Positions 27,149-48,839 of a DNA stretch of 64,000 nucleotides are shown in pieces. A model generated the notes under the pieces. It made no database searches and had not been told where the DNA came from. It was given only the letters and a program-made list of their open reading frames with translations. This DNA is from Rhodoblastus acidophilus. GTDB taxonomy: Bacteria; Pseudomonadota; Alphaproteobacteria; Rhizobiales; Beijerinckiaceae. Both the position numbers and the translations under genes were made by a program. The stretch is taken from contig NZ_JAOQNX010000017.1 in the NCBI RefSeq assembly GCF_025961575.1, positions 45,928 to 109,927 on the forward strand, given 5' to 3'. Every line of letters begins with the position of its first letter. The stretch's first letter is position 1.

Positions 27149-27226
27149 CGGAGTGTAGCGCAGTCCGGTTAGCGCACTAGTCTGGGGGACTAGGGGTCGT
27201 GGGTTCGAATCCCGCCACTCCGACCA
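27149..27226 (+). tRNA. tRNA-Pro (anticodon GGG)
   Basis: A 78-nt cloverleaf with encoded CCA. The acceptor stem is CGGAGTG/CACTCCG, the anticodon stem CTAGT/ACTAG, and the loop CTGGGGG places GGG at 27184-27186. The T arm carries GGTTCGAATCC. The 3' half from 27182 is identical to the repeat at 48793-48839, so the gene is the integration target and is restored by the element's copy. Confidence 0.97.
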
Positions 27227-27228
27227 TT
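27182..27228 (+). other. attL, left attachment core (47 bp)
   Basis: Perfectly identical over 47 bp to 48793-48839. It runs from the anticodon loop of tRNA-Pro through CCA to two bases beyond the gene. Confidence 0.95.
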
Positions 27229-27257
27229 AAAACCCAAGGAAACCAAGGGTTTAGCAA

Positions 27258-27288
27258 AGAGCGGCGGATAGTTCCCGCCGCTCTTTTC
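27258..27288 (+). terminator. element-borne terminator downstream of tRNA-Pro
   Basis: AGAGCGGCGG / CCGCCGCTCT perfect 10-bp stem followed by TTTCG. It ends the tRNA transcript in the integrated state and prevents read-through into the element. Confidence 0.88.
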
Positions 27289-27665
27289 GTTTCTGGGTTC
27301 GGAAATGGGACACAGGTAGCCGGGCCGCCCCTGCGAATCCTCACGAATCGTCGTTGGTCCCAAAGCACCATCAGGCGCTCTTGACCACCGATTCCCCGCT
27401 CTGTTACGTTCACGCCCGATCGATGCCACTGAAAACTGGCAGCCGACCAATCCCGCATAGGCCACCGCGCGCCCATGGGGACGGCGAGGAAGTAGGGGAC
27501 AGGTTGCTGGTCGGGATTTGAAGGACCGACTGGACGCGCTGGACGAATTGGACGGTCAGCGCTGCAAACCGGCGACAGCCAGCGGGTTCAGGGCAGCGCA
27601 GAGAAAGCCCCCGCAATCACCTTCGCAACTGACGGGCGCATTGCGCCTGCTTGCGAGGTGAGGCA
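27289..27665. other. left-end non-coding region with a possible integrase arm site
   Basis: No supported gene. AAATGGGACACA at 27303-27314 recurs in the same orientation at 48666-48677 near the right end, where a second TGGGACACA follows. It is therefore a candidate arm-type site. Hypothetical frames here are antisense readings of the tRNA. Confidence 0.45.
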
Positions 27666-27923
27666 ATGGCCGCTGAAAATCGAAATCCCCAATCTGAGCT
27701 TGTTCATGGTCGCCGCCCTATGGTGCGCCGTAGGGACCTTGCCGCGTTCTTGAAGGCAAGTCTGCCTACCGTCGATCGATGGCTTGCAGAAGGCTACCTA
27801 CCGCCGCCCACCGTGAGGTTTGGCAACACGCCGCTATGGTCGCCGAGCATCTTGGACGACATCGCGGAAGGACGTCTGGGGCAAAGGCGCAGGCGTTCAC
27901 CGGACGACGTGGCGTTGTCGTGA
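27666..27923 (+). CDS. HTH excisionase/AlpA-like protein
   Basis: An 85-residue MerR/HTH_17-type DNA-binding protein. The core (VRRRDLAAFLKASLPTVDRW, then LPPPTVRFGNTPLWSPSILDD) is the usual helix-turn-helix plus wing of excisionases and AlpA regulators. ATG 27666 follows GAGGTGAGG; an upstream TTG at 27651 is less likely. Its place at the left end facing inward suggests a role in excision or early activation. A terminator follows. Confidence 0.8.
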   Translation: MAAENRNPQSELVHGRRPMVRRRDLAAFLKASLPTVDRWLAEGYLPPPTVRFGNTPLWSPSILDDIAEGRLGQRRRRSPDDVALS

Positions 27924-27943
27924 CACGCAGCAAATCCATGGAC

Positions 27944-27975
27944 AGCCCTCGGCGAAAGCCGGGGGCTTTCTTTTT
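27944..27975 (+). terminator. terminator after the HTH gene
   Basis: AGCCCTCGGC / GCCGGGGGCT stem around GAAA, followed by TTCTTTTT. Confidence 0.9.
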
Positions 27976-27990
27976 GTCCAGGACGTCACA

Positions 27991-28024
27991 CGTTGCAACG
28001 TTCAATGGTCTAAGTAACGCAACG
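27991..28024. promoter_or_regulatory. CGTTGCAACG palindrome, single-copy relative of the origin repeats
   Basis: The 10-bp palindrome CGTTGCAACG (27991-28000) and CGCAACG (28018-28024) match the repeat family clustered at 32265-32457. The site is just after the HTH gene terminator. Confidence 0.55.
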
Positions 28025-28496
28025 TCGTTATGTCGTATTTGTGAAAATAGTACATACGAACATACGTCGTTTTGGCGCTTATAGTCGCATTATGACATTA
28101 TAGGCCATGCATACAACTCAGGATGCACTTGACTTATATTTTAAAATATGCGCTGATGCCCCTATCGGGCGATTTGCCCCGAAATTTAGCCAAGCACGGC
28201 CACACCTGCCGCAGAACCCCATTTCTGCGAACGGCGAAGCTTTGCCCGAATGCGCTGCAATCATCGTGAATAGGGCGACCCGCTAGGCAAAACCTAGCTT
28301 GAGGGGAAGGGGCGGGGAGCGGTCCGCTTATAGCAAAAAGAACCGCCTAGCTGAGTGTTAGCGCACAGCTAGACTTGCGCGAGGACTGCCGACGACGGCT
28401 ATGCGCGCTTCAGTATGAACAGAGAATTGGCGCGAAGTTTCATCGCGACGCGCCGTTTGGCAATTTTCAACGCCATAATTTTTGAGGAATAGACGA
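28025..28496. other. long early regulatory region
   Basis: No gene supported in about 470 bp. The first 120 bp are AT-rich with short repeats (CATACG, GTCGTTATG) and may hold the early promoter. The remainder is structured; see the CTAG inverted repeats at 28282-28372. A ribosome site (GAGGAATAG) before ATG 28497 closes the region. Confidence 0.5.
28282..28372. other. cluster of CTAG inverted repeats
   Basis: GCTAGG-CAAAA-CCTAGC (28282-28298) is a perfect hairpin. CTAGCTG (28347-28353) and CAGCTAG (28366-28372) form a second one. CTAG is rare in proteobacterial DNA, and four copies lie in 90 bp. A similar cluster precedes terS at 33371-33457. Possible protein-binding or packaging site. Confidence 0.5.
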
Positions 28497-29020: not shown

Positions 29021-29029
29021 AGCCGCCAC

Positions 29030-29754: not shown

Positions 29755-29777
29755 GCCGGCACCTGCCGGCTTTTTCT
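29755..29777 (+). terminator. terminator after the early operon
   Basis: GCCGG / CCGGC stem (extendable by two pairs) followed by TTTTTCTTTC, immediately after the stop at 29754. Confidence 0.7.
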
Positions 29778-29796
29778 TTCCCGAGGACAAACATAC

Positions 29797-30026: not shown

Positions 30027-32240
30027 ATGGCCCCGAACCCGAAGCCCGTAATGGCTGAAACCTCTGGCGAGACGAAAGCTCGCCAGTCCCATAATCGCAA
30101 GCTGGCCCTGCGCCTTGTAAGCGCTGGCCTCGCGATCTTTCCGGCTGTGAACAAAAACCCGATCGCGAAACGCTTCCAGCACCTCGACACGGCTATGACA
30201 GCGTCAGAGATCGCCGAGGCCGCCGCCGAGTTCCGCGACAACTATGGGCGTGAACCCGCATATGTTGGCTCAACCAAAAACCCCGCCATTGTCCGCAAGC
30301 TCTGGAGCGAATACCCGGACGCCGTGCCCGCCATTTGCGGCGGCCCGAATGGCTTGCTTATTCTCGATGTCGATTTCGGCAATGGCAAAGACGGGCCGCG
30401 CAAACTGGCGGCTTGGCTGAACGACCAAGGGCAAGAGTTGCCGAAAGGCTCGCCGGTCACGGCGACCCAATCGGGCGGACTGCATGTCTTCTTTCGCGAC
30501 CCTGACGGCATGGGCAACCACGAAGGCGTTTTCGCCGACCTCGACACGAACGTTCGCGGCAGGGGCGGCTATGTCATTGCGCCGGGGGCTTGGCGTGAGG
30601 ACGGCAAGCGGTACTCCGCCGCGCCCAAAGCGCCCGATCTGGCAAGCGCCTTCGCATCCGGTTCAATTCCGGCTTTGCCTGCGTTCATTCGCGAGGCGAT
30701 CCAGACGCGGACGCGCCCCATTGAGGTGAGCGACGCCGACGCCGCGCGCCTCACCCTCGACAACATGCCGGAATGGGATGCCGTCCGCGCGAAGTTTGAC
30801 CTCGACGGGCTGGCCGATCGAAACGCGAAAATGCGTGCGATCCTCAGGTTTGACGATGCGCTGGACGATGCGCCGGATTTCTCGGCGAACCGCATCAAGC
30901 TCGCGACGCGACTTGCGGGCGATCATGGCGACGCCTTCACATTTGAGGATTGGGCCGCGATCGCTGAGAATTGCGAGGGGACCGGCCATTACGTCGAAAA
31001 ACTCTCATCTGAAAAAGTGCCCGGCGAGTTCGATCTTCGGGCGTTGCGCCGCGAGTTCATGAAAGCAAAGGCCGCAACGAAGCAACCGGACGGGCTAGCG
31101 TTCGGCGTTGTGGAATTATCAGCCGAGGAAATGGGCGAACGCCCCCATGTCGCGAACGACAACGCGAAGGAACCGGAGAAGGCAGAGAAGCCGAAAATAA
31201 AGAGCTTTTCGCAGTTCCGGGCTGAATATGTCCCGCAATCCTTCGTTGCCGAGCCGGCGATCGTCGCCGCCTATCTCTACACACTGACTGCGCGCACCGG
31301 GCACGGCAAGACGCTGTTCTTGTCGTCTCTCGCAATCGCAGTCGCCACGGGGCGGCGGGATATCCTGGGGATGGAAGTCAGGCAAGGAAAGGTGCTCTAT
31401 TTCAGCTTTGAAAATCCCGAAGACTTTCGTGTGAAGCTCTGCGCCGCCGCCGTCGCCCACAACGCGGACGTTGCCGCGCTGGACGCCAACTTGCACATTG
31501 TCTCAGTCAAGACCGCACCGGAGTTGATGCGCAAGCTCGCGAAGGCGGCGGCGAAGCCCTGGCGACTCGTCATCGTCGACACTTTGCAGGCCGGTTTCGA
31601 CGGCAAGGACGCCAACGACAATATGGAGGCTCTGGCTTATTTGCGACGCCTTCGCCCGCTTTGTGCGACCGAAGGCCGCCCCGCTGTTGTCGTGGCGGCG
31701 CATCCGGTCAAGAACGCCTCGAAAGACAATCTACTGCCCTACGGGGCGGGCTCAGTCGCGAACGAGGCGGACGGCAACTTGACGCTTTGGAAGGACGACA
31801 GCGCGCGGATCACTACGCTTCACTGGCAGGGAAAGCTGAGGGGGTTCGACTTCGACCCCATGGCCTTTGCAATCGCGCCCGTGACGATCAGCGACATGCT
31901 GGACGACAAGGGCCGCCCGTTGGTCATGCCTGCCGCCAAGCCTGTTTCGTCGGATGATGCTGCAACAGCCCTGGAGAAAGCCGAGGCGCAGACTACCAGC
32001 CGGCGCGAGCGCATCTTGCGCGCCGCGCTTTCCGATCCTAGCGGATCAATCCAGAAATGGAGCGAGGCCACGGGGATAAACAAGGGCTCCATCCATCGCG
32101 ATCTTGAGCGGATGGCGCAGGAAAAATTGGTCGAAAAGATCGGTTCGCGCTGGACGGTCACGGCAAGGGGAAAGCGCATCGCGGTCGCTTCTGAAGCGAC
32201 CGAGCCGAGCGCCGGTTTCACCGCAGTTGATGACGACTGA
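30027..32240 (+). CDS. bifunctional primase-polymerase / RepA-like helicase
   Basis: A 737-residue replication protein. The N-terminal Prim-Pol domain (about 25-230) shows LLILDVDFGNG with the catalytic aspartates near residues 113-115, SGGLHVFF near 150 and RGGYVIAPG. The central AAA_25/RepA ATPase has Walker A TARTGHGKT (about 419-427), Walker B LVIVDT (about 515) and AHPVKNASKDNLLPYGAGS. The C-terminus (about 660-730) is a winged helix, with INKGSIHRDLERM as the recognition helix. This architecture is common in phages and phage satellites. The repeat cluster just downstream is its likely origin. Confidence 0.9.
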   Translation: MAPNPKPVMAETSGETKARQSHNRKLALRLVSAGLAIFPAVNKNPIAKRFQHLDTAMTASEIAEAAAEFRDNYGREPAYVGSTKNPAIVRKLWSEYPDAVPAICGGPNGLLILDVDFGNGKDGPRKLAAWLNDQGQELPKGSPVTATQSGGLHVFFRDPDGMGNHEGVFADLDTNVRGRGGYVIAPGAWREDGKRYSAAPKAPDLASAFASGSIPALPAFIREAIQTRTRPIEVSDADAARLTLDNMPEWDAVRAKFDLDGLADRNAKMRAILRFDDALDDAPDFSANRIKLATRLAGDHGDAFTFEDWAAIAENCEGTGHYVEKLSSEKVPGEFDLRALRREFMKAKAATKQPDGLAFGVVELSAEEMGERPHVANDNAKEPEKAEKPKIKSFSQFRAEYVPQSFVAEPAIVAAYLYTLTARTGHGKTLFLSSLAIAVATGRRDILGMEVRQGKVLYFSFENPEDFRVKLCAAAVAHNADVAALDANLHIVSVKTAPELMRKLAKAAAKPWRLVIVDTLQAGFDGKDANDNMEALAYLRRLRPLCATEGRPAVVVAAHPVKNASKDNLLPYGAGSVANEADGNLTLWKDDSARITTLHWQGKLRGFDFDPMAFAIAPVTISDMLDDKGRPLVMPAAKPVSSDDAATALEKAEAQTTSRRERILRAALSDPSGSIQKWSEATGINKGSIHRDLERMAQEKLVEKIGSRWTVTARGKRIAVASEATEPSAGFTAVDDD

Positions 32241-32563: not shown

Positions 32564-32755
32564 ATGAGCCCGACGAACCGTCTCGCCGCCGCGCAGGCGA
32601 TCAATCCCGATGTCGCGCAAGCCCTCGCCGATCGCGCCGAACACTTGCGACAGCTCGGCGGGCGCGAACAGGAGATCAACGCCGAGTTCGAACAGCGGTC
32701 ATTGGTCGCCGAGTTGCACCGCCGCCAGATGGGAGGCGCGAGCGATGGCCGTTGA
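32564..32755 (+). CDS. small hypothetical protein before the gpZ-like gene
   Basis: A 63-residue helical, charged protein (NRLAAAQAINPDVAQALADR, then EQEINAEFEQRSLVAELHRR). ATG 32564 follows GGAG by eight bases. Upstream in-frame ATGs (32441, 32366) would run through the origin repeats. It overlaps the next gene by 11 bp. Function unknown. Confidence 0.6.
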   Translation: MSPTNRLAAAQAINPDVAQALADRAEHLRQLGGREQEINAEFEQRSLVAELHRRQMGGASDGR

Positions 32756-33356
32756 GATAAGTGTTACACTCGACGCCAAAGAGTTCATCGAGCGAATGGA
32801 GCTTGCCGCGCGCGAGACGGTAAACGGCCTTCGTCGCGCAGTCGACAAGACAGCCCGGCAGGCGCGCAAGCAGGCAATCGCGAAAATGGCAATCGACATC
32901 GGCGTCGCGCCCTCGAAATTCAGAGACGCGACGCCGCTTGTTAAGCCGTCGACGCAAGGAAACATAAGTGCGAGCTGGACGGTCAACAAAGCGAAGATCG
33001 GCGCGCTCAATATCGGCACGTTCTCCCCCGGCCCGTCGTGGAATCGAGGAAGCTTCGCGGGTTCGACCTATCGCCTCACGGGCGGCGGTTCGGCAAGCCT
33101 AGCGATCGGAAAGGCTTTCATCCTCGAAGCCAACGGCGGACGTGCGTTGATGATACGCACCGGCAGCGGGCGAAAGGCTGTGAAGGCCATTTATGGCGAG
33201 ACCCCAGCGACCGCGATGGGGCAAGATGGGGCAGCGCCGCGCCGCTCTTGGAAGTTCGCGGCGGAGATGATGCTTCGCCCGCAAGTCGAAATAGAGCTGC
33301 AACGGGCGCTCGACGGACAGCGGGGCGCAAACCCAGACAATCTCCCGCGCGACTAG
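32745..33356 (+). CDS. phage tail completion protein, lambda gpZ-like
   Basis: A 203-residue protein resembling the Minor_tail_Z family, which finishes the tail top before head joining. Features are an N-terminal helical part (VDKTARQARKQAIAKMAIDIGVAPSKFRD), then a strand-rich middle (ASWTVNKAKIGALNIGTF) and a C-terminal ..RPQVEIELQRAL helix, the gpZ/gp10-like end. ATG 32745 follows GGGAGGCGCG. It sits before terS, unlike in lambda, where Z follows the head genes. Assignment is by pattern recognition. Confidence 0.6.
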   Translation: MAVEISVTLDAKEFIERMELAARETVNGLRRAVDKTARQARKQAIAKMAIDIGVAPSKFRDATPLVKPSTQGNISASWTVNKAKIGALNIGTFSPGPSWNRGSFAGSTYRLTGGGSASLAIGKAFILEANGGRALMIRTGSGRKAVKAIYGETPATAMGQDGAAPRRSWKFAAEMMLRPQVEIELQRALDGQRGANPDNLPRD

Positions 33357-33457: not shown

Positions 33458-33604
33458 GCCTGTGCGCCTGGGCACGCGCCGCACCCCGCCCGCCGCCTGC
33501 CTGGAGGGTGCGCGGGTCCTTCCGGCAATGCTGAAAAACGCAGTGCGGCGCGCTGCCGCGTTTTCTTTACTGAAAACGTTGGTTTTTTGGTTGGTGCCAA
33601 AGGG

Positions 33605-33946: not shown

Positions 33947-33992
33947 ATTTGCGACATCCCGTTTGCGCATCAAGAACAAGGAACTTCACGCG

Positions 33993-34514
33993 GTGACACG
34001 CGCAACAATCTCGGCGCTCGCCGCCGAAAACCATATCGCGCGCTCTGTCGCGCTCCGTCACCTGAACGACGCTGGCATTTTTCGCGATCCGAACGACAAG
34101 ACGTTTGACCACGACGAAGCAAGCGCCGCGATCAAGCTACGCCTCGACGAAGACCGGATCAACGGTAACCGCGTCGCAGGCCGCGCCTCGAACGGCAACA
34201 GCCTGGACGATGAAGCCCGCCGAGCGCTTAACCGCTCGAAGGCCGAAGCCGAGCAAATGCGCGCGCGGAAGATGCGCCTTCAGCTCGAACAGGCCGAAGG
34301 TCGCTTGGTTGAGCGCGAGGCCGTCGAAGCCGTATGCCGCGACATCGCCACTCGCGCCCGATCGGCCTTTCTTTCGATCGGCTCGAAGCTCGCGCCTCGC
34401 CTCGCTGGCATGACCGATGAACGGCAAATCCGCGCGTTGATCGATCAAGAGGCCGTCGCTGCGCTCGGCGTGCTCGCCGACCCGGAAACTTTCGATAAGG
34501 AGGCGCTGAGTTGA
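33993..34514 (+). CDS. phage terminase small subunit
   Basis: A 173-residue DNA-recognition subunit (gpNu1-like). The N-terminal winged HTH spans about 1-50 (VTRATISALAAENHIARSVALRHL). A basic linker and a long helix (RKMRLQLEQAEGRLVEREAVEAVCRDIATRARSAF) follow, typical of small terminases that bind the large subunit through the C-terminus. I chose GTG 33993, preceded by AAGGA; a frame open from 33879 overlaps the divergent secreted gene. Its stop directly precedes the TerL ATG. Confidence 0.82.
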   Translation: MTRATISALAAENHIARSVALRHLNDAGIFRDPNDKTFDHDEASAAIKLRLDEDRINGNRVAGRASNGNSLDDEARRALNRSKAEAEQMRARKMRLQLEQAEGRLVEREAVEAVCRDIATRARSAFLSIGSKLAPRLAGMTDERQIRALIDQEAVAALGVLADPETFDKEALS

Positions 34515-36733: not shown

Positions 36734-38395
36734 ATGACCGCACCTAACATCACGCAAACGGCGGGCCTGCCCGCCGTCGCGCCGCCTGCGGCGCTCGCCG
36801 AGGCGCTGAAGGCGCAAGCCGGCTTCATGGACGGCACTGATGGCAAGGGACCGCGCCTTGCCTGGGCGCGCTATTCTGTGCCCTTCGGCGGGTATGGCTG
36901 GAGCACGGGCGCGAACGTTCCATATGCGATAACAATGGGCGGGCAGCACGCGCGGGAAGCGCCTTTGGCTTCGGCGGTTGCGAATGACCTTGCAACCTCC
37001 AATCCAGCGCTGGCGACGATCCTTGACAACTTGGAAGTGGACGGCGTTGGAACCGGCTTGACGCTCTCCAGCAAACCGGACGCGCAAGCGCTCGGCATTT
37101 CCGATGAAGCCGCGCGGGCGCTGTCGCACGCGATCGAAACCAAATGGGCCGCTTGGATCAACAGCCCGATCGAATGCGATTACGTCGGACGCTTCGACGG
37201 CCACCAAATCGCCGCCGCCGCGTATCGCGCGTATTTGCTGAACGGCGAGACGTTGGCAACACTCGAATGGGCGCGCGTGCCCGGCGCGACGACGCGGACG
37301 AAGGTCAACCTGTTGGACAATCGCCAACTCGACACGACGATTACGCGCATCGAAGATGGCCGCAAGGTTCTGAGCGGCGTTGCGTTCAACGATCGCGGGC
37401 AAATCGCAGGTTTCTACCTGCGAAGCCTGCCGCTCGGAAATACCGTCGTTGCGCCCATGGCGCAATTCGTTCCCGCGCGGACGTCATGGGGCCGCGTGAG
37501 AGTGGCGCACATTTTCGAGCTGCGCGACCCTCGGCAGGTTCGCGGCCTGTCGCCGCTGATCGCCGCGTTGACGCCAGCGCAGGAGAAGGAAAGCCTCGGC
37601 GAGTTCACCCTTGCGAACGCGATGCTGCAAACCCAATTCGCGTTGACCGTCGAATCAGACCTGCCGCCGCAACACGCTTTCGGCTCGCTCGAAGTGAACG
37701 ACGCCATGTCCATCATAGACGGCTTCGTCAAACTTCGTGAAGAACGTTACAGTCAAGCGAAAATTCAGCCGCAACCGGGTGTGGTCAATCATCTGGCGCC
37801 CGGCGACAAGTTGAAGTTCAACAAGGTCGAAAATCCGCACCAGACGTTTGACGCCTTCGACAAGTCGTTGACGCGCAAGGCAGCGAGAGCGGCGGGCCTC
37901 GCGTACGAACAGGTTTCCGGCGACTTCGCGTCAACATCGTTCAGCGCGTCGCGCATGGCGATGGAAGCGCCGCATCGCATTAACATGAAGCGGCGGCGGA
38001 ACATCCTCGAACGGTTCTATCGGATCATGTTCGAGGCATGGGCTGAAGAAATGTTCGAGACGGGGCAAATTGAGACGCCGGAAGGTGCGCCGCCGTTCTG
38101 GCAAGCGCGTGAGGCTTATTGCGCCGGCAAGTTCCTTGGGATTGGCAGGTTTGAGCCCGACCCGAAGAAGGCCGTTGAAGCGGACGTTCTGGCCCTGGAA
38201 AACAACATTGAAACATTGGAGGACGTGCTTGCGCGGCGAGGCCGCGATTTGGAGACGCACCTTGCGCAAGTCGCCGCTGAGCGCGCGCTAATGGCGCAAT
38301 ATGGCCTGACGTTCAAAGGCGTCGTCACGACGCAGGATCGCAACGAAACGATCGAAGAAGACGACGAAGCGCCGAAGGCGGCTCGTCACAACTAA
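36734..38395 (+). CDS. phage portal protein (lambda gpB family)
   Basis: A 553-residue protein forming the dodecameric DNA channel of the head. Conserved portal features include ISDEAARALSHAIETKWAAW, RAYLLNGETLATLEW, HIFELRDPRQVRGLSPLIAAL, YEQVSGDFASTSFSASRMA and a C-terminal helical crown with FEPDPKKAVEADVLALENNI. Length matches lambda-type portals. It follows the scaffold-like gene by 4 bp in one operon with the terminase. Confidence 0.92.
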   Translation: MTAPNITQTAGLPAVAPPAALAEALKAQAGFMDGTDGKGPRLAWARYSVPFGGYGWSTGANVPYAITMGGQHAREAPLASAVANDLATSNPALATILDNLEVDGVGTGLTLSSKPDAQALGISDEAARALSHAIETKWAAWINSPIECDYVGRFDGHQIAAAAYRAYLLNGETLATLEWARVPGATTRTKVNLLDNRQLDTTITRIEDGRKVLSGVAFNDRGQIAGFYLRSLPLGNTVVAPMAQFVPARTSWGRVRVAHIFELRDPRQVRGLSPLIAALTPAQEKESLGEFTLANAMLQTQFALTVESDLPPQHAFGSLEVNDAMSIIDGFVKLREERYSQAKIQPQPGVVNHLAPGDKLKFNKVENPHQTFDAFDKSLTRKAARAAGLAYEQVSGDFASTSFSASRMAMEAPHRINMKRRRNILERFYRIMFEAWAEEMFETGQIETPEGAPPFWQAREAYCAGKFLGIGRFEPDPKKAVEADVLALENNIETLEDVLARRGRDLETHLAQVAAERALMAQYGLTFKGVVTTQDRNETIEEDDEAPKAARHN

Positions 38396-38410: not shown

Positions 38411-38746
38411 ATGACAGCGTTCAATAGGCCGCCTCTGCGGTCTAGCGGCCTTCCTGCGCCCTCGGCACCGCCGCAGGCGATTGACAACCCTTGCGCGTAC
38501 CTGCCGCAGCTTCGCGCGGCTTTGTACGCCCTCCTTAGCGGAGCGCAGAGCCAACAAATCCGCGACGGCGACAGGTGGCGGTCGACGCAGAACGGCAACG
38601 CCAAGGAGCTGCGTGCCGAGATTCGCAAACTCGAAATCATGTGCGATCCGCGCTTGCAACGCCGCGCGGTTCGGGCGGGGCCTTATGTGCCAGCCGACGC
38701 CGTACCCGGCTATGGCTACCCGTTCGGCTTCGCCTGGCCTTACTGA
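38411..38746 (+). CDS. gpW-like head-tail connector protein
   Basis: A 111-residue protein. The central part (LRAALYALLSGAQSQQIRDG, then NAKELRAEIRKLEIMC) matches the gpW pattern: helix, short hairpin, helix. In lambda gpW stabilises packaged DNA below the portal. The C-terminal tail is rich in proline, glycine and tyrosine. ATG 38411 is 15 bp after the portal stop; lambda has W before the portal. Confidence 0.65.
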   Translation: MTAFNRPPLRSSGLPAPSAPPQAIDNPCAYLPQLRAALYALLSGAQSQQIRDGDRWRSTQNGNAKELRAEIRKLEIMCDPRLQRRAVRAGPYVPADAVPGYGYPFGFAWPY

Positions 38747-38758: not shown

Positions 38759-39376
38759 ATGACCGACTTAACCGCAGAAGACCGGGCGGCGCTCGGCTTG
38801 CCCGAACCGCCTTCTCCCTATGCTGGAGTTTTCGCAGCGGTTCACGCCGGGCACCATGCTGACGGCGCAAGGCAACTCGAAGCGCAGCACCAAGAGCAAC
38901 AGCGACGCATTGCGGCTCGAAATGCCGCCAAAGCGGCAGCCGATCGCCAAGCGTTCTTGGCTTCGCCTGCCGGCAAGGCCGAACAGCAGCGGCGCGAATA
39001 CCGCCACGCGATCATGGGGCTTCCTGAAGCGCAGGAGCACGCCGACGCCGCAATTCTGTTGGCGCTCACCCATGACGCGAACAGCCTGCCGCCCGAACGG
39101 GCGGCGCTGATCCTCGGCGGCTTGCCCGCCGAAAACCTTGAACCATCCGAACCGCAAACCATCTCTCAGGAAACCGCCGACATGTCCGAACCGACCCTCA
39201 AGCGTCGCGCCGAAATCCGCCTCGCTGCGCTCAGTCACCGCGCCGACCTGGGCGACCACGCCGCCCGCTCCGAGGCCAACAAAATCAGCTACGCGCTGAA
39301 ACTCGCCGCCGAGGGAATGAACCTGGCCGCCGCCTGCCAACAGCTCGGCGTTGACCTCTCGAAAATTCAGAACTGA
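38759..39376 (+). CDS. scaffold-like coiled-coil protein with possible nested start
   Basis: A 205-residue protein. Residues 35-75 are a charged coiled coil rich in Q, A and R. Residues about 80-122 (YRHAIMGLPEAQEH, then ALTHDANSLPPERAALILGG) repeat the scaffold-like motif seen in the 36310 protein. An in-frame ATG at 39181 preceded by AGGAAA could start a nested 64-residue product (MSEPTLKRRAEIRLAALSHR...), as Nu3 is nested in lambda C. No capsid or protease gene follows. Confidence 0.5.
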   Translation: MTDLTAEDRAALGLPEPPSPYAGVFAAVHAGHHADGARQLEAQHQEQQRRIAARNAAKAAADRQAFLASPAGKAEQQRREYRHAIMGLPEAQEHADAAILLALTHDANSLPPERAALILGGLPAENLEPSEPQTISQETADMSEPTLKRRAEIRLAALSHRADLGDHAARSEANKISYALKLAAEGMNLAAACQQLGVDLSKIQN

Positions 39377-39389: not shown

Positions 39390-39749
39390 ATGATCCCGAA
39401 CAACCCGAATAATTCGACCGTGATTCCTGCGCCGCTGCCTGTCGCGACCGTCAACCTGTCGCGTCCGCTTATGACGCATAAGGGGCAAGTGACCTCGCTC
39501 GAACTGCGCGAACCGCTCGCCGGCTCGTTTTTCGACCATGCCGAGCCCTTCAAGATTCGCGTCAAGGATGGCCGCGTTGATTTCGACTACGACAACGCCG
39601 CGATGATGCGCTTTCTCGCCGACATGTGCGGGCATGATGTCACCGTCCTGCGCGGGCTTGCGGCGCGCGATTACATGACCGTTCGTACCGCCGTGACTGA
39701 CATCATTCTCGGCCTCACGGGAACCGAGGAAAACCCTACAAATTCGTAA
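39390..39749 (+). CDS. phage tail assembly chaperone (TAC)
   Basis: A 119-residue protein resembling the P2 gpE / Mu gp41 chaperone family: VNLSRPLMTHKGQVTSLELREPLAGSFFD at the start, then a helical MMRFLADMCGHDVTVLRGL. Such proteins coat the tape measure during tail assembly. ATG 39390 follows GAAGGA. Its 3' end carries GGAAAAC (39728-39734), after which the -1 frame stays open to 39877, as in other phages that make a frameshifted long form. No tail-tube gene is found before it. Confidence 0.68.
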   Translation: MIPNNPNNSTVIPAPLPVATVNLSRPLMTHKGQVTSLELREPLAGSFFDHAEPFKIRVKDGRVDFDYDNAAMMRFLADMCGHDVTVLRGLAARDYMTVRTAVTDIILGLTGTEENPTNS

Positions 39750-39937: not shown

Positions 39938-42268
39938 ATGTCTAACCCCCAAGTCACCGCGACCATTAGCGCGGAAGACAAGGCCAGCGCCGTCTTGAAG
40001 GCCGTTGCGCAGCTCGCCGACAAGGTCGCCAAGGACCTGGAGAAGACCGGCAAGACGAACGCGCTCGGAAACTTGCCGGGCCAGTTTAACGCGGCAACTT
40101 TGGCCGCAGAAAAACACCTTTCGGTTCTTCACCGACTAAACGCCGCCTTCAAAACTCTCGCCGCCAGCGCGGCGAGCTATGCGGCCTATAAATTCCCCCA
40201 TGTCGCCGCCGACGCTGTGAAGGAATATCTGCCGATCGAACGCGAGCAAATCGCGATGAAGGCGGCGGGGCATTATTCCGACGCCGACATGGATATTTTG
40301 CGCAAGCAGCAAACGACCCTGGCGCAGAAATACGGCGAGACGCCCGAGGCGGTTGTTCACGCGCAATCGGAATTCGTCAAACGCCACATGGACGCCGGCA
40401 CCGCCGCCGCCATGACCGAAGAGGGCGTAAAGCTCGCCAAGGCGATCGGCACCACTGCCGCCAACGGCGCGCGTATCCTTGAGGGTATGATTTTCGGCAC
40501 CGGGCACCATGTCACGACGCCTGAAGAGGCGCACCGCCTGGGCAAGCGCTTCGCGGACATCGCCGCTGTTCAGAACAAGATGGGTGCGATGTCGCCTGCG
40601 GACATCGAAGGCGGGTGGAAATACGCCGCCGCCGCGACCACCGCCGCCCATATTTCGCCGGAGCAAGTCGCGGCCACGCAAATGGTGCTCAAGCGCGAAC
40701 AGTTCGGCGGCGATGAAAGCGGCGTGTTCTGGCGGCAGCTCGGCGCGCGTGTGATGATGCCAACCAACGAAGGACGCATCGCGCTTCAGGCCGCAGGAAT
40801 CAAGTATGACGACTATGTCGGACCCGGCAAGCTCAACGCGAAAAACTTAAATCTCACGTTCGCTGAAGCCGGCTTGAAGGAACTTCCGACGCACGAAATC
40901 GCGGGCTTGCAAAAGAAGGCCGAAGCCGGCGCGTTCAAAACGAAAGCTGTTTTCGGCGCGGCTGTTCGCGACGCATACGACCGTGCGTTCGGCGATACCA
41001 GCGCCAAGGACCTAAATGTGATCGGCAAGAAAGCCGGCGCGTTCTTCGAGTCGTCAAAAGGTCAGGTCGACGGCGCGAAGCTTTGGGAAGCTATGCTGCA
41101 AAAAATGTCGGCGCAGCAAATCCTTGAATTCCTGGGCACCAAGCAGGGCGCGAAAGGCGTCTCCGCGATTCAGCAGCTTCAGACGAACAAGGAATACGAA
41201 GACCTTCTGAAAAACGCGGGAGGCACAGCCGACCGGATCGCGCGCGAGCGCATGGATGGGCTCGCCGCCGCCGTCGACCGCCTGACCGCGTCCTATGACG
41301 ACGCCAAGAACCAATTCGTTGAGGCGAACAAGCCCGTGTTGACCGGGCTTGCCAATCTCGGAACGAAGCTCACCGGCTGGCTTTCCAGTCTCGACGGCGC
41401 GCAGAAGCAGACAACCACTTATGCCGCCGCGCTGGCTTCGGTTATCGGCGGGGCTTGGGGGCTCAAGTCGGCGCTGGACCTGTCGAAGAAAGTGCTGGAA
41501 AGCATCACGGGCAAGCCCGCAACGCCGGGCGTGCCTCTTGCTCCTGCCGCCGTGCCTGGAGCGCCTGCCGGCGCAGCGCCTACCGCTGGCGGTTCAGCCC
41601 TCGGCGCAGTCTTGCCCGCCTCGCTCGGCGTCGCAGCCGGGGCGGTAGCGGCGGGCGCGATTCACGAAGCCATGTGGGGCTTGAAGTCCCTCGGTTTGAT
41701 CGACTCGACTGTAAGGCCGCACGGGCCTGGACATTGGGAGGAAGCGCGCCAGGGCCGATCTACTTACCGCAAGTGGGTTCCTGATAGCCTGTTCGAACGG
41801 TACGACAATCAGAACCCGAAAAACGAATCCTTCCTGAAGGCGGCTTATGAGCGCCTGACCTACACCGACCCGTTCGCGCATCGCAGGGCAAGCGAAATGC
41901 TCGGAGCGCCTACGTTGGCAGGTGACAGGGCCGCCGCTGCGCTTGAACGTATGCAAAAACCCGAGCCCTCGCTTTATGGCGGCTTCGGCGCGAACAACGG
42001 TCAATTCCGCTTGCCTGCCGCTGAACCTTCTTCCGGGGCGGCGAGCGATAAGGGCAACCTGTCCGCGCTGCTTTCCGCCGTCAACGCGATCAACAGCAAA
42101 CCCGTTGACGTCAACGTGGCCGGACAGGTGAGCGGACAGGCCGAAGTTCACAGCTCGATTCAAATTGAGTTGACCGGCGCAGACAAGGTCGCACGGCAGG
42201 CGGCGAGCATGGTCAAGATTCCACTCGACGGAAACCTGAACAAGAACGGACAGCAACAGCAAAGGTAA
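39938..42268 (+). CDS. phage tail tape measure protein
   Basis: A 776-residue protein that would set tail length. The N-terminus (ISAEDKASAVLKAVAQLADKV) and the region of residues about 90-350 fit the PhageMin_Tail core (ERE.. helix, then AIGTTAANGARILEGMIFG). A hydrophobic segment (SLGVAAGAVAAGAIHEAMWG) lies near residue 570. The C-terminus is repetitive and basic. A 20-codon stretch near 42055-42115 (NLSALLSAVNAINSK) recurs in inverted orientation at 57959-58018. Confidence 0.85.
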   Translation: MSNPQVTATISAEDKASAVLKAVAQLADKVAKDLEKTGKTNALGNLPGQFNAATLAAEKHLSVLHRLNAAFKTLAASAASYAAYKFPHVAADAVKEYLPIEREQIAMKAAGHYSDADMDILRKQQTTLAQKYGETPEAVVHAQSEFVKRHMDAGTAAAMTEEGVKLAKAIGTTAANGARILEGMIFGTGHHVTTPEEAHRLGKRFADIAAVQNKMGAMSPADIEGGWKYAAAATTAAHISPEQVAATQMVLKREQFGGDESGVFWRQLGARVMMPTNEGRIALQAAGIKYDDYVGPGKLNAKNLNLTFAEAGLKELPTHEIAGLQKKAEAGAFKTKAVFGAAVRDAYDRAFGDTSAKDLNVIGKKAGAFFESSKGQVDGAKLWEAMLQKMSAQQILEFLGTKQGAKGVSAIQQLQTNKEYEDLLKNAGGTADRIARERMDGLAAAVDRLTASYDDAKNQFVEANKPVLTGLANLGTKLTGWLSSLDGAQKQTTTYAAALASVIGGAWGLKSALDLSKKVLESITGKPATPGVPLAPAAVPGAPAGAAPTAGGSALGAVLPASLGVAAGAVAAGAIHEAMWGLKSLGLIDSTVRPHGPGHWEEARQGRSTYRKWVPDSLFERYDNQNPKNESFLKAAYERLTYTDPFAHRRASEMLGAPTLAGDRAAAALERMQKPEPSLYGGFGANNGQFRLPAAEPSSGAASDKGNLSALLSAVNAINSKPVDVNVAGQVSGQAEVHSSIQIELTGADKVARQAASMVKIPLDGNLNKNGQQQQR

Positions 42269-42271: not shown

Positions 42272-42676
42272 ATGAGCTACGTGCAAACCAATTGGCTCGC
42301 CGGGATGCAAGACGTTTCGGCGTCGATAGATCAGGAGTTCGGCGAAGTCGTCACGATCATTCCTTGCAAAATGCGCCCCAACTTCAGGCCGCAACCACTT
42401 GAGGATCACGCCGTCACGTTGATGGCGGTTTTCTCGTGGCGATCTTTAATGGTCCTCAAGATCAATTCCGGCACCACGACGCGCGCCGACCCGATGGCGG
42501 AAAGCCGCAAGCCTGTTTTCAGCTTCAGCCGCGAGGCGTTGCCGTGGGCGCTCAATAGCGGCGACCTGATCCGACGCGAATGCAGCGGCGACGTTTTCGA
42601 GATCACGGGCGTTGAGCCGGACGGCGTGTCGCGGATCGTCGCGCGTACGACGCAGATGGGGCGGCAATCGCAATGA
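42272..42676 (+). CDS. possible FII-like head-tail stopper
   Basis: A 134-residue strand-rich protein. FGEVVTIIPCKMRPN, KPVFSFSREALPWALNSGDL and DVFEITGVEPDGVSRIVART follow the order seen in lambda FII-type joining proteins: a barrel of strands with a turn at the end. ATG 42272 follows AAAGGTAACCC, four bases after the tape measure stop. The assignment is weak; it could be another small tail protein. Confidence 0.4.
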   Translation: MSYVQTNWLAGMQDVSASIDQEFGEVVTIIPCKMRPNFRPQPLEDHAVTLMAVFSWRSLMVLKINSGTTTRADPMAESRKPVFSFSREALPWALNSGDLIRRECSGDVFEITGVEPDGVSRIVARTTQMGRQSQ

Positions 42677-42984
42677 CCGTCGCGCCCGTTTCGATCAGGC
42701 GCAAGCCGACAGGGCCGCCGACGTCGACAGACACGCCGATGTTGTTGCGTCCGGCGATCCGAGAGCTTCGGCAAGCACAGAACGGCGTCGCGGCTATGGC
42801 TGTTTTCGATGGCTTGCCCAAACGCGTTTGCCTGGAGGCCGCCGCCTTCATGGTTCAACGCCCGGCGCTGTTCGCGCCTGACGTCATTTCAACGGCGCTC
42901 AAGCTGACCGGCTTCAAGTGTCTGGCTCACAAGATCGGCGCGACCCGAGCACACGCGGCCTTTGCACGCTTCATCGTTCACTGA
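42673..42984 (+). CDS. hypothetical protein at the end of the structural operon
   Basis: A 103-residue protein overlapping the previous stop by 4 bp (ATGA), so translationally coupled. The N-terminus is proline-rich and basic; the rest is helical (LRPAIRELRQAQNGVAAMAV, VCLEAAAFMVQRPALFAPDV). No family recognised. It is the last gene of the late operon; no tail-tip or lysis gene follows. Confidence 0.6.
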   Translation: MTVAPVSIRRKPTGPPTSTDTPMLLRPAIRELRQAQNGVAAMAVFDGLPKRVCLEAAAFMVQRPALFAPDVISTALKLTGFKCLAHKIGATRAHAAFARFIVH

Positions 42985-43833: not shown

Positions 43834-44160
43834 ATGAAAGAGAGCGGGACCGTAACCGCATCGATCCGGCTACCCGCTGAGCTAATGGCGCTCATAAGGG
43901 CAGAAGCCGAAAGGCAAAACAGGTCAATCAACTTCCTAATGGTCGACGCGCTGAAGCGCGCGTTCCTGGCGGACAGCCAACCGACCAAGCCGAAGAAATC
44001 GACCTGGAATCAGGAGGCGATGCGCCGCGTGCTCCAGATCGTTGAAGACGCGCTGGAGAGCGCAAAGGCCGAAGTGGAGGCGGCGCAGAAAGCGCAGTCG
44101 ACCAAGCCGAAGCCGACGAAGGCCAGCGCAACAAAGGCCAGAGCCAAGCCGGTAAAATAA
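43834..44160 (+). CDS. ribbon-helix-helix (Arc-type) DNA-binding protein
   Basis: A 108-residue protein. Residues 5-50 (TVTASIRLPAELMALIRAEA, then NRSINFLMVDALKRAF) are a ribbon-helix-helix domain. The C-terminal half is a basic, lysine-, alanine- and proline-rich tail that could bind DNA non-specifically. ATG 43834. The palindrome over its promoter suggests autorepression. It has no toxin partner next to it. Confidence 0.8.
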   Translation: MKESGTVTASIRLPAELMALIRAEAERQNRSINFLMVDALKRAFLADSQPTKPKKSTWNQEAMRRVLQIVEDALESAKAEVEAAQKAQSTKPKPTKASATKARAKPVK

Positions 44161-45461: not shown

Positions 45462-45755
45462 CTACTGTCCGCCATGCGCCCGTCGCACTTCACCCTCAGT
45501 AATTTCCGGCTGTGGAGCTTTCGTTTGAACGTCTTCGGACCAAGCGAAGAACTCAGATGCACGGACGTTCAACTCTTTGCACAGCGCCACCATCAAACGG
45601 GCATGTATCCGTTGTTGGCCATTTTCGAAGGCTAACAGTGCTTCTGTTCCTGTGCCGACAGCCGCAGCCAAATCAGCCAAAGTTCGATTGCGTGCAAAGC
45701 GAAAGCGGCGCAAACACTTGCCAACCTTAACGTCAACCTGATTTGTGATAGCCAT
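45462..45755 (-). CDS. XRE family HTH regulator, paralogue of 56713-56979
   Basis: A 97-residue Cro/C1-type protein. KCLRRFRFARNRTLADLAAA, then GTEALLAFENGQQRIHARLM, forms the five-helix HTH (about residues 12-66); a short tail follows (SEFFAWSEDVQTKAPQ). It is the best candidate for the element's lysogeny or immunity regulator. It is divergent from the 46063 gene across a 300-bp structured region conserved in both copies. Confidence 0.82.
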   Translation of the reverse strand: MAITNQVDVKVGKCLRRFRFARNRTLADLAAAVGTGTEALLAFENGQQRIHARLMVALCKELNVRASEFFAWSEDVQTKAPQPEITEGEVRRAHGGQ

Positions 45756-46254: not shown

Positions 46255-46277
46255 GAAGATAAGGCAGCCAATCGGAC

Positions 46278-46300
46278 GCCCGGCGATCTGCCGGGCTTTT
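46278..46300 (+). terminator. terminator after the 46063 gene
   Basis: GCCCGGC-GATCT-GCCGGGC followed by TTTT. The same hairpin occurs in the inverted copy at 56163-56185. Confidence 0.85.
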
Positions 46301-46510
46301 CATTTCAACCCAATCCGAACCTGCGGACGTCCGCCCGCGCCTGGAGCGCCTGCGGCTGGATCATCTACCAGGGTGACTTCCGAAGGCCGCTCGCCGCACG
46401 CCCGACACTTCAGCCGGGCAGCGCCTCGCCGAGTTGCACGTCACGCCCGGCACGCTCCGAGAGCATGGATATGGGCATGTAGGACAGTTTGCAGCGGCAC
46501 CGCGTTTCGA

Positions 46511-47314
46511 TCAGTGTCCAGGTGCCCGCATTCTGTCTTCCAATTCAAAGAGGCGGACCAAATCGTTGCGGGAAACGATGCTCGTTACGGGTATGTGGTG
46601 AGATTCTTGCAGCGCCGGCGTAACTAGTTCGGGTTTGATTCCAACTTCGTTTCGCATCTCTTTCAGTGTGCTCGCGACGCGCTCTTTGAAAAATAGATAT
46701 TCATTATTGATTGGCAGAAAAATGAATGTATGTAGAGATTTGATACGAAAATCTGAAACTAAAACATTCTGATCAATAAACTCGACGCTTCTGTAATGGA
46801 AAAATGAAACATTTTTCATGTCATCAATGTTCCAATTACGTGCGTCTGTTTCAAGGCCTTCTAGCCCTAGGGCGTATAAATCGCTATTAACCCGCTCCCG
46901 ATTTAAGATTGATCTGTAAATTTCTTCGGAAAAATGGTATCTGTCACCTGTTCTGATTGATTTAGTTATTTGTAAACAATTGAGGTGGGTTTTCATTAGC
47001 CAGTTCATGCGATTCAAATTAAAGGAGACGCTTCTGCCAATGAGATTATGATGGGCGCAAATTTCGCCAACGAATATTGCTGCTTCCGTGTCATAAGGGC
47101 TTAAGCTCGAATTGCAATCTTTGCATACGTGTTTTGATGTTGGTTCATTGTCTATTAAATTCCGCCCGCCAAACAATTCGCCGCCGACGATATTTTTTAC
47201 CGGCGTCCCAAAAACTCTGCGAAGAACTGAGGCGGAAATGATATGTTCTTTGCTAAATTTTACTTTCGTTTCTCCGCAATATGGGCAGCGCTTTTTTGTG
47301 TTTAATTCTAGCAT
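46511..47314 (-). CDS. HNH-like zinc-finger nuclease candidate (cargo gene)
   Basis: A 267-residue protein much AT-richer than the rest of the window. The N-terminus has CPYC (C10, C13), SKEHIIS (H24) and CKDCN (C64, C67, N68), the arrangement of treble-clef HNH endonucleases with two zinc knuckles. The remaining 200 residues are unlike any family I know. It lies next to the integrase, where mobile elements often carry accessory or anti-phage genes. A defence role is inference only. ATG 47314. Confidence 0.55.
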   Translation of the reverse strand: MLELNTKKRCPYCGETKVKFSKEHIISASVLRRVFGTPVKNIVGGELFGGRNLIDNEPTSKHVCKDCNSSLSPYDTEAAIFVGEICAHHNLIGRSVSFNLNRMNWLMKTHLNCLQITKSIRTGDRYHFSEEIYRSILNRERVNSDLYALGLEGLETDARNWNIDDMKNVSFFHYRSVEFIDQNVLVSDFRIKSLHTFIFLPINNEYLFFKERVASTLKEMRNEVGIKPELVTPALQESHHIPVTSIVSRNDLVRLFELEDRMRAPGH

Positions 47315-47397
47315 TTTTCTTGCCTTTCATGCCCCATCAATCCTGCAACGCTGTTCAATCGCGCTTTAGAAAATCATTTTCGTATCCGTTTGCGAGC

Positions 47398-48624
47398 CTA
47401 TGCAACAATCATCTTGATCCTATCCGCCAGCCTTTCGACCGCTTCACGTTTCTCCGCAAGCATGTCGTAAAGGTCGTAAACGCCTGTGATTGATCCGTCG
47501 ACATGGTTCAGCAATGCTCGGACCGTGTCGCGGCTGACGCCGGGTTCCTCGCCTACCTTTTTCCTGCATAGCGTCGCGCCTGTTCGACGCAGGTCGTGCG
47601 GCGTGAATGGCTTCAGGCCCTTTTCTATATGGTCCGCGTCCGAGCAAATCCGCCGCGTCGCCTGCGAAAGGCTGTGCCGAGCAATGCCGTCCGTTGAAGC
47701 CCATTTGCTCGCGAACACGTAGGGGCTTTCGCCGTCTATGCCACGGCGCTTATCGGCGAGCGCTTCCTTAATCGTCTCAACGGCGAGGGGTGATAGCGGC
47801 ACAATATGGGCGCGTCTGTTCTTTACCCGTTCTTTGGGGATCGTCCATTGCGGGGCAGGGGTGTCTAGTTCCAGCTCTTCAACCTTCATCCCGGCGACCT
47901 CGCCGGGGCGGGCGCACGTCAATAGAATCGTACGAAGCGCAAGCTCAATGCTCCGCGACGTCGGCGACAAGGGATCATCAAGCGCCCACCAAAGAACCTT
48001 CAGCTCGGCGTCGCACAGTACCCGGTCTTTGGCCCTCTCCTTTTTGCCGCTGAACTTTTTCGCGCCGGCCAGGACGTTTTCTTTGATTAGATCGCGGTCA
48101 ACGGCATAGCCGAGCATCGTACGTAGGACGGATTGCGTACGGTTCGCGGACACGGGGGCGGTTGCCGCAATGTCGGACAGCAGTTCCGCGAAGTCGCTGC
48201 GCGTGAGGCTGGAGGCTACCCGATCGCGCCACTTGTTCAGCGGGCGCTGCAAATAGCCCTTGTCATTCTTCCATGACGCCTTCGTGCGCTCGACATGCGC
48301 AAGATAACGTTCAACCAAGTCGCCAAACGTCATGCCTTCGCGCTTTGCGGCGATTGCCTCGGCTCGGATGTCTTGGCCGCCCTCAAGCTTCGCGCTCTCG
48401 GCGCTGGCTCTTGCTCGGGCTTGCGCAAGCGACATTGCGGGGTAGCGACCTAGCGTCAACCTGACGGTCGTGGCCTGACCTTTGCCGCGCGCCAAGAATC
48501 CCCAAACCTTGCCCGTGCTCGTGACGCGCAGACGAAGGCCTTTGCAGCCTTCGTCTGTGAATTCGAGGCGCTGCTTCGTTGATGCCGTTACGTGCTCGAC
48601 GAACTCTTTCGTCAGCTTGGTCAT
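47398..48624 (-). CDS. tyrosine integrase (P4 type)
   Basis: A 408-residue site-specific recombinase. The N-terminal DUF4102-like arm-binding part (LRLRVTSTGKVWGFLARGKG, LGRYPAMSLAQARARA) precedes a SAM-like core-binding domain (about 95-185) and the catalytic domain. Catalytic residues are R239 (TCARPGEV), H343 and R346 (PHDLRRTGAT), H374 (LLNHVDG) and the tyrosine at 383 or 386 (GVYDLYDM). Its start lies about 170 bp from attR. It should integrate and excise the element at tRNA-Pro. Confidence 0.95.
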   Translation of the reverse strand: MTKLTKEFVEHVTASTKQRLEFTDEGCKGLRLRVTSTGKVWGFLARGKGQATTVRLTLGRYPAMSLAQARARASAESAKLEGGQDIRAEAIAAKREGMTFGDLVERYLAHVERTKASWKNDKGYLQRPLNKWRDRVASSLTRSDFAELLSDIAATAPVSANRTQSVLRTMLGYAVDRDLIKENVLAGAKKFSGKKERAKDRVLCDAELKVLWWALDDPLSPTSRSIELALRTILLTCARPGEVAGMKVEELELDTPAPQWTIPKERVKNRRAHIVPLSPLAVETIKEALADKRRGIDGESPYVFASKWASTDGIARHSLSQATRRICSDADHIEKGLKPFTPHDLRRTGATLCRKKVGEEPGVSRDTVRALLNHVDGSITGVYDLYDMLAEKREAVERLADRIKMIVA

Positions 48625-48665
48625 TTTGCGCCCCTTCAGGTCAGACCCCTAGTCTCATACCACGA

Positions 48666-48686
48666 AAATGGGACACATGGGACACA
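48666..48686 (+). other. candidate integrase arm sites, right end
   Basis: AAATGGGACACA (48666-48677) followed by TGGGACACA (48678-48686) in tandem, between the integrase start and attR. The first matches 27303-27314 exactly and in the same orientation. Confidence 0.45.
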
Positions 48687-48792
48687 AAATAGCGCGGGCT
48701 CCTGACTAGTGCTGATGGGTTCTGATGATAAAAGTCAACAGAAACAACGGTTATAAGAGCTTCTGAATGTGTCTGAAAACCACTTTGGCTGC

Positions 48793-48839
48793 CTGGGGGA
48801 CTAGGGGTCGTGGGTTCGAATCCCGCCACTCCGACCATT
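48793..48839 (+). other. attR, right attachment core (47 bp)
   Basis: Identical to 27182-27228. It is the displaced 3' half of tRNA-Pro, marking the right end of the element; the 5' half of the tRNA is absent here. Confidence 0.95.

What the first reader, a model, noticed from the sequence alone, without database searches (positions are those of the whole stretch)
27182..48839. Phage-like element with packaging, neck and tape-measure genes but no shell or tube: candidate new satellite type
The element keeps TerS, TerL, portal, gpW-like, gpZ-like, chaperone and tape-measure genes, plus integrase, HTH and primase-helicase. No frame long enough for a major capsid, capsid protease, tail tube, tail tip or lysis protein remains. 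What is kept are low-copy parts that set which DNA is packaged and tail length; what is missing are bulk parts a helper could lend. Known capsid-forming satellites keep the capsid and lack tails, so this looks like the reverse. A deletion-derived prophage is the main alternative.
Basis: partly seen in the sequence, partly recalled or inferred. Interest (0 to 1): 0.85.

Follow-up and report, generated by a model that had tools for sequence, protein, structure and literature searches.

The report
Satellite that borrows shell and tube
A 21.6-kb element inserted at a tRNA gene carries genes for its own DNA-packaging motor, portal, head-tail connector and tail ruler but no recognisable shell or tail-tube gene; the same kind of gene set recurs in 14 related elements, so it likely spreads by using shells and tubes lent by a still unknown helper phage.

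Summary
The element (27182-48839; 47-bp direct repeats at tRNA-Pro) encodes integrase, Prim-Pol helicase, TerS, TerL, portal, adaptor, stopper, neck protein, tail chaperone and tape measure; no capsid, tube, tip or lysis gene was recognised. It is not a local deletion: the cassette recurs, in the same order and without a capsid gene, in 14 relatives as far as their contigs reach. Portal and TerL trees place all 17 elements in one clade (100/99), and most cassette genes compared show strong purifying selection. Six elements with measurable size span 21.6-24.0 kb; one contig looks like a closed circle. New here: two scaffold-like proteins related to the scaffold tail of phage head proteases, a gpFII-like stopper, and a lambda-type cos-like site before terS, present in 14 of 16 elements and not found in the ordinary relatives held. 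Best reading: a satellite class that makes the virion's axis and is predicted to borrow the bulk polymers, the reverse of capsid-forming PICIs. Against it: no helper was identified, nothing shows packaging, three or four relatives keep a head protease, and several cargo proteins remain unidentified.

The parts
27182..27228 (+). attL: 47-bp direct repeat, 3' part of tRNA-Pro(ggg) 27149-27226
   Evidence: exact repeat; ARAGORN and Rfam tRNA
27666..27923 (+). small HTH protein, possible excisionase/regulator
   Evidence: PF12728 E 0.0098, weak
30027..32240 (+). Prim-Pol plus AAA helicase, replication protein
   Evidence: PF09250 E 2.6e-19, PF13481 E 2e-21
32610..33356 (+). gpZ/neck1-like tail-completion protein (start uncertain)
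   Evidence: phrog_27 E 9.8e-12
33514..33559 (+). lambda-type cos-like site: GGGTCCT, 24 bases, GCGG-N7-CCGC
   Evidence: only match in 64 kb, 0.05 expected; 14 of 16 elements, 9 of 3600 shuffles
33963..34514 (+). TerS (start uncertain: TTG 33963 or GTG 33993)
   Evidence: phrog_57 E 3.9e-18; start codons
34515..36326 (+). TerL, lambda gpA type
   Evidence: PF05876 and PF20454
36310..36729 (+). o139, scaffold-like protein
   Evidence: phrog_53 scaffold part E 3.3e-7; hhalign to C-terminal region of ordinary S49 proteases E 1.4e-11
36734..38395 (+). portal protein, lambda family
   Evidence: PF05136 E 4.8e-63
38411..38746 (+). head-tail adaptor Ad1, gpW-like
   Evidence: phrog_75 E 4e-4
38759..39376 (+). 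o205, helical scaffold-like protein
   Evidence: AF2 all helix, pLDDT 83; hhalign to o139 E 1.2e-7 and to the S49 protease C-terminal region E 2.4e-6
39390..39749 (+). tail assembly chaperone
   Evidence: homologue L053:309-638, PF10109 E 1.1e-4, under cut-off
39938..42268 (+). tape measure protein, 776 aa
   Evidence: phrog_28 E 1.1e-14, PF10145 E 4.4e-8
42272..42676 (+). o134, gpFII-like stopper
   Evidence: Foldseek lambda neck 8k37_M E 4.5e-5; homologue in G718 matches phrog_82 head closure, E 5e-4
42673..42984 (+). o103, conserved, function unknown, not modelled
   Evidence: profile hits in relatives
43834..44160 (+). Arc-like ribbon-helix-helix protein
   Evidence: PF03869 E 2.9e-4
45462..45755 (-). 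Cro/CI-type HTH regulator
   Evidence: PF01381 E 1.8e-6
46511..47314 (-). HNH-like protein, cargo
   Evidence: PF14279 E 8.8e-6, under cut-off
47398..48624 (-). tyrosine integrase
   Evidence: PF00589 E 2.1e-15, PF13356 E 9.4e-13
48793..48839 (+). attR: 47-bp direct repeat
   Evidence: exact repeat of 27182-27228

Best explanation
This is likely an integrated phage satellite, one of a conserved family that encodes the axial parts of a virion (terminase, portal, connector, scaffold-like proteins, tail chaperone, tape measure and a cos-like packaging site) and likely depends on a helper phage for the bulk polymers, the capsid shell and the tail tube. Shown by sequence: gene set, att repeats, cos-like site, one clade, purifying selection, a contig that closes into a circle. 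Inferred steps: (1) a helper infection or induction triggers excision, and Prim-Pol replicates the element; (2) satellite portal plus scaffold-like o139/o205 nucleate assembly of helper capsid protein, possibly into a smaller shell that fits about 22 kb; (3) satellite terminase cuts its own cos and docks on its own portal, so satellite DNA is packaged in preference to the helper's; (4) adaptor, stopper and neck protein close the head; (5) satellite chaperone and tape measure take up helper tube subunits and tip to make the tail; (6) helper lysis genes release the particles.
For: The cassette is in the same order on one strand in the window and 14 relatives as far as contigs reach. 17 elements are one side of a branch in portal and TerL trees, support 100/99, 100% of 200 bootstrap trees. 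dN/dS 0.04-0.13 for eight cassette genes between G455 and G456. Exact att repeats of 46-49 bp at tRNA genes in the window, G639, G461, G706, and 15 bp in G125; sizes 21.6-24.0 kb, n=6 with circle G459. G459 reads as a circle against near-copy G454. Cos-like site in 14 of 16 elements. No capsid or tube recognised; o205 helical, o134 a stopper. Host genome has no Phage_cap_E or Phage_capsid gene. Cargo such as a type ISP restriction enzyme in G639 is usual for satellites (recalled).
Against: No helper identified; phage-record searches gave weak or no tape-measure and chaperone matches. No evidence of packaging or transfer. The window's host has no resident capsid gene of two families, so a helper would have to come from outside. 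S49 protease in G453, G454/G459 and L073 blurs the parts split. Perfect cosN half absent in G125 and G639. o103 and several cargo proteins are unidentified; 11 of 14 PHROG families hit by unassigned ORFs have no described function. Ad1 and o205 are less constrained in the G100 group, 0.22-0.45, and o139 0.22 in one pair.
Confidence: 0.72

Rival explanations
1. An ordinary prophage that lost its shell and tube genes by deletion and is decaying in this host.
For: Cassette genes are homologous to those of ordinary lambda-head prophages that have protease, decoration and capsid genes in that place.
Against: Same capsid-less order in 14 relatives, one clade, purifying selection, intact frames, att and cos-like sites.
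Confidence: 0.07
2. A complete small phage whose shell and tube proteins are too divergent to be recognised.
For: o103 is unmodelled; cargo proteins of 369-424 aa in G459 match no family; 11 of 14 PHROG families hit have no described function.
Against: No conserved unassigned protein is of capsid size except o205, which models as helical with scaffold-region homology; in the window the largest unassigned ORF outside the cassette is the 267-aa HNH-like one; cargo differs among members.
Confidence: 0.1
3. An interference island: the phage-like parts poison assembly of invading phages and are not used to package the island.
For: Phage parts can act as assembly interference (PMC11364771, listing only); some members carry defence cargo.
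Against: Own terminase, own cos-like site, integrase, att sites, narrow size range and a circular relative fit transfer better.
Confidence: 0.08
4. A domesticated gene-transfer or particle-making locus of the host.
For: Structural genes under purifying selection.
Against: tRNA att repeats, integrase, empty sites in same-genus genomes, patchy distribution: 2 of 397 genomes of the order and 3 of 265 of the Bradyrhizobium genus.
Confidence: 0.03

Closest known systems
Capsid-forming PICIs (cf-PICIs)
   Same: Integrated satellites with own TerS, TerL, portal and connectors (definition from PMC10690885 passages)
   Different: They encode major capsid protein and protease and depend on the helper for tails only; here no capsid gene was recognised, the window has no protease, and chaperone and tape measure are present
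Streptomyces satellites MulchRoom and MiniFlayer (PMC10690885)
   Same: Own terminase, portal, scaffold and head-tail adaptor
   Different: They encode the major capsid protein; no tape measure is mentioned in the passages seen
E. coli cos-type PICIs (PMC9026076)
   Same: Carry cosQ and cosN in the lambda layout
   Different: Use the helper terminase through Rpp; this family has its own TerS, TerL and portal
P4 and SaPIs
   Same: Satellites that use scaffold-type proteins to redirect helper shells (PMC10690885 passages)
   Different: P4 lacks capsid, tail and lysis genes (PMC4936722 passage) and is packaged by the P2 terminase; here motor, portal, connector and tape measure are own
Ordinary lambda-head prophages (G718, G571, L031-L037, G639 contig C16)
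   Same: Homologous TerL and portal, and in several Ad1, stopper and protease-scaffold region
   Different: G718 has decoration, major head and baseplate genes; portal and TerL of the nine tested lie outside the satellite clade (G639 C16 not in the trees)

Membership tests
Phage satellite (general) | Mobile integrated element with integrase and att sites | tested here: met
Phage satellite (general) | Lacks some genes needed for its own particles | tested here: met
   No capsid, tube, tip or lysis family recognised; an unrecognisable gene cannot be excluded
Phage satellite (general) | Packaged and moved by a helper phage | not testable with these tools
   needs induction or infection
cf-PICI | Encodes major capsid protein | tested here: not met
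   none recognised
cf-PICI | Encodes head maturation protease | tested here: not met
   absent in the window; present in G453, G454/G459, L073
cf-PICI | Own terminase, portal and connectors | tested here: met
Canonical PICI or P4-like | Relies on the helper large terminase and portal | tested here: not met
   own TerL and portal
Complete lambda-like temperate phage | Major capsid and tail tube genes | tested here: not met
   none recognised in the window
Lambda-type cos | GGGTCCT then a GC-rich dyad about 30 bp on, next to terS | tested here: met
   against the NC_001416 junction
Lambda-type cos | cosB (TerS binding repeats) and actual cleavage | not tested
   not searched; needs end mapping
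Scaffold proteins (Nu3 / protease tail type) | Homology of o139 and o205 to the C-terminal region of S49 head proteases | tested here: met
   hhalign E 1.4e-11 over 49 columns (o139) and 2.4e-6 over 50 columns (o205)
Scaffold proteins (Nu3 / protease tail type) | Acts as scaffold in shell assembly | not testable with these tools
   Foldseek and VIA-align of o205 gave no significant or informative match
Decayed prophage | Genes broken or without purifying selection | tested here: not met
   intact frames; low dN/dS in relatives for most cassette genes

The most novel reading that the evidence does not exclude
A new satellite class, the mirror image of capsid-forming PICIs: it builds the virion's axis (cos, motor, portal, scaffold, connector, chaperone, tape measure) and takes the symmetric bulk polymers, shell and tube, from a helper. 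Because portal and terminase are its own, every shell nucleated on a satellite portal is locked to satellite DNA, giving hybrid virions whose genome choice, connector and ruler are the satellite's.
Probability: 0.58. Interest if true: 0.95.

Novelty: new variant of a known kind. Interest (0 to 1): 0.85.

Why it matters
The satellites described in the papers seen here borrow tails, capsids or whole particles. A conserved family that keeps only low-copy axial parts would show that virion assembly can be divided between two genomes along another seam, axis against polymer, with the portal as the likely point of control over which genome is packaged. It makes testable whether the tape measure and chaperone of one genome can recruit tube subunits of another. 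Searches that key on capsid genes would likely file such elements as defective prophages.

Tried and rejected

Helper search led nowhere. Tape-measure, tape-measure C-terminus and chaperone queries against 50,697 phage records gave 17 weak records, none, and one weak record. A C-terminal region search of the protein collection returned 27 proteins, the query among them; their genomic contexts were not examined apart from those already held. Of five carrier genomes, Phage_cap_E was found in one (G639) and Phage_capsid in two (G125, G461); of the three regions fetched, only the G639 one showed related TerL and portal.

The first genome-contig scan found nothing; the second gave one locus, Bradyrhizobium neotropicale. 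A class survey found only the own genome among 385. In genome surveys only the few best first-look candidates per genome were scored. Script flags 'out of order' for G450 and L073 come from contigs that end near portal; both are left out of the count of 14. L074 (4.6 kb, related TerL and portal) was dropped from all counts as a fragment. dN/dS rows for o139 in G455/G456 and G454/G459 are unusable (profile picked another gene), o205 in G455/G456 has almost no changes, and Prim-Pol and integrase rows at 28-38% identity were not used. The TerL tree carries long-branch warnings among the ordinary phages.
Full report
OBSERVATION. The element is bounded by an exact 47-bp repeat at 27182-27228 and 48793-48839; the left copy is the 3' part of a whole tRNA-Pro(ggg) gene. 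A join of the flanks matches past the junction by roughly 60 bases in 3 of 10 other genomes of the same genus (G005, G003, G006), which are therefore empty sites; G008 and G009 cross it only by about 15. No capsid, tube, tip or lysis family was recognised.

RECURRENCE. Portal and tape-measure queries brought in viral contigs and genomes with the same cassette. Distinct elements besides the window: G449, G450, G101, G100, G451, G452, G453, G454 (near-copy G459), G455, G456, G457, G706 (same scores as IMG/VR G458), G125 (identical to IMG/VR G460), G461, G639 and L073, 16 in all. G450 and L073 end at or soon after portal. The window and the other 14 keep the order gpZ, TerS, TerL, o139, portal, Ad1, o205, chaperone, tape measure, o134, o103 on one strand, so far as each contig reaches. 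G449 starts within TerL and ends before the tape measure; G453 starts at TerS and ends in o134. o134 was not found in G101, G100, G451 and G461; o103 not in G101, G100, G451 and G125. Extra genes: an S49 protease between portal and Ad1 in G453 and G454/G459, also after portal in L073; a GIY-YIG gene there in G449.

NO HIDDEN SHELL OR TUBE RECOGNISED. In four elements with long att repeats (window, G639, G461, G706), 53 unassigned ORFs of at least 115 aa with under 30% overlap to assigned genes were scanned against PHROGs; 14 families matched, three with a description (sigma factor, restriction endonuclease, endonuclease) and 11 without one; none is named capsid or tube. In G459, 10 ORFs were scanned, among them every unassigned one over 128 aa of the gene list; six unassigned ones had no PHROG match, so proteins of 369, 387 and 424 aa there stay unidentified apart from a weak repressor HTH in the 387-aa one. 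Whole-element scans were not done for the other relatives. o205 models as all-helical, pLDDT 83. o134 models as a small beta protein; the six Foldseek matches at E below 0.001 are all from neck or portal-neck structures, lambda first. o103 was not modelled.

ONE CLADE UNDER SELECTION. In trees of 26 portals and of 26 TerLs, the 17 satellites are one side of a branch against nine ordinary phages (100/99; 100% of 200 bootstrap trees). A protein search gave 108 portals: 105 at 308 bits or more, the window's own included, then a drop to 110, 90 and 45 bits (7,992 candidates scored). Between G455 and G456, dN/dS is 0.04-0.13 for gpZ, TerS, TerL, portal, Ad1, tape measure, o134 and o103, and the chaperone has no amino-acid change; in the G100 group Ad1 and o205 are looser (0.22-0.45) and o139 is 0.22 in one of two pairs. 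A decaying prophage would not look like this.

MOBILITY. Five integrated elements with definable ends lie at tRNA genes (Pro twice, Arg, Lys, Cys; the Cys case, G125, rests on 15 bp). With the circle, six sizes span 21.6-24.0 kb, mean 22.7, s.d. 0.9. Contig G459 reads as a circular permutation: near-copy G454 crosses G459's two ends inside o205 with four bases unaligned. The IMG/VR end class was not shown, and a concatemer would look the same. Distribution is patchy: 2 of 397 genomes of the host's order, 3 of 265 of the Bradyrhizobium genus, and only the own genome among 385 of the class.

PACKAGING SITE. Before terS lies GGGTCCT, 24 bases, GCGG-N7-CCGC (33514-33559), the only match in 64 kb (0.05 expected). 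The pattern occurs in 14 of 16 elements whose region is held, 574 to 2,025 bases before TerL, once in each contig held; in some members it overlaps the end of the gpZ frame or the upstream part of the TerS frame. G125 and G639 have GGGTCCT with a degenerate second half. Block-shuffled regions: 9 of 3,600. No locus of an ordinary relative holds it. The lambda end junction, read from NC_001416, has the same layout. That GGGTCCT is lambda cosQ is recalled; PMC4669245 (passages) says cosQ is 7 bp, highly conserved and needed to end packaging.

SCAFFOLD-LIKE PARTS. Ordinary relatives have an S49 protease whose C-terminal region matches scaffold families. o139 aligns to that region (E 1.4e-11, 49 columns), o205 more weakly (E 2.4e-6, 50 columns), and the two to each other (E 1.2e-7). 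They look like scaffold pieces freed from the protease. That they steer a helper shell is inference, by analogy with P4 Sid and SaPI scaffolds (PMC10690885 passages).

ORDINARY RELATIVES AND HELPER. G718, a prophage in the Bradyrhizobium genus and the nearest ordinary portal found, has protease, decoration, major head and head-closure genes in the expected place and a baseplate gene. L037 has, by my reading of sequence starts only, capsid, sheath and tube genes before its chaperone and tape measure. The window's host genome has no Phage_cap_E or Phage_capsid gene; other capsid families were not tried. G639 also holds a lambda-head prophage with Phage_cap_E and S49 protease genes, a candidate helper type and no more.

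MECHANISM. Shown: parts list, sites, kinship, selection. Inferred: helper-triggered excision, shells of helper protein nucleated by satellite portal and scaffold, own cos cut by own terminase, own connector, helper tube laid on own ruler, helper lysis.

NOVELTY. Ten searches of the open library (one search was on cos) and passages of PMC11389934, PMC10690885, PMC4936722, PMC4669245 and PMC9026076 showed no satellite that encodes portal, connector and tape measure without a capsid gene. Papers outside that library, including the original cf-PICI paper, were not read. I file it as a new variant of a known kind, phage satellites.

Noticed in passing
G639 element (L085:9725-12883 -, L085:13622-14332 -); G706 element (L083:11446-11997): Cargo between the cassette and an element end differs by member: type ISP restriction enzyme and a Panacea/SocA antitoxin in G639, a PIN-domain protein in G706.
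   Followed up: partly
L086:9429-10016 (-); L084:8713-9330 (-): Sigma-70 family (ECF-like) factor encoded upstream of Prim-Pol in G639 and G706; a possible satellite-specific late regulator. None was seen in the window.
   Followed up: partly
L014:2975-3949: GIY-YIG endonuclease-like gene between portal and Ad1, where other members have nothing or an S49 protease.
   Followed up: partly
L017; G454 against G459: Mosaicism: L017 has a TerL close to the window's but a portal only 48% identical; G454 and G459 share the cassette at about 98% DNA identity but their integrases are 28% identical.
   Followed up: partly
G001:C17:54973-55023, G001:C13:64983-65030, G008:C38:2070-2121, G003:C10:9950-9996, G009:C177:31154-31200: Lone 47-52 bp copies of the tRNA-Pro end in same-genus genomes: likely att ends of other islands at the same site.
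   Followed up: no
G452 contig 10922-13965 (L055): A second, short Prim-Pol-like frame and a second weak integrase match lie beside the element: possible remnant of a tandem element.
   Followed up: no
P0035; P0150: Odd labels: a tape-measure fragment is named ribosomal protein L32E, and a family portal is named Klebsiella pneumoniae, probably mislabelled or contaminated.
   Followed up: no
window 56001-58000: GC drops to 0.53-0.55 outside the element, against 0.63-0.68 around it: another possible foreign patch.
   Followed up: no
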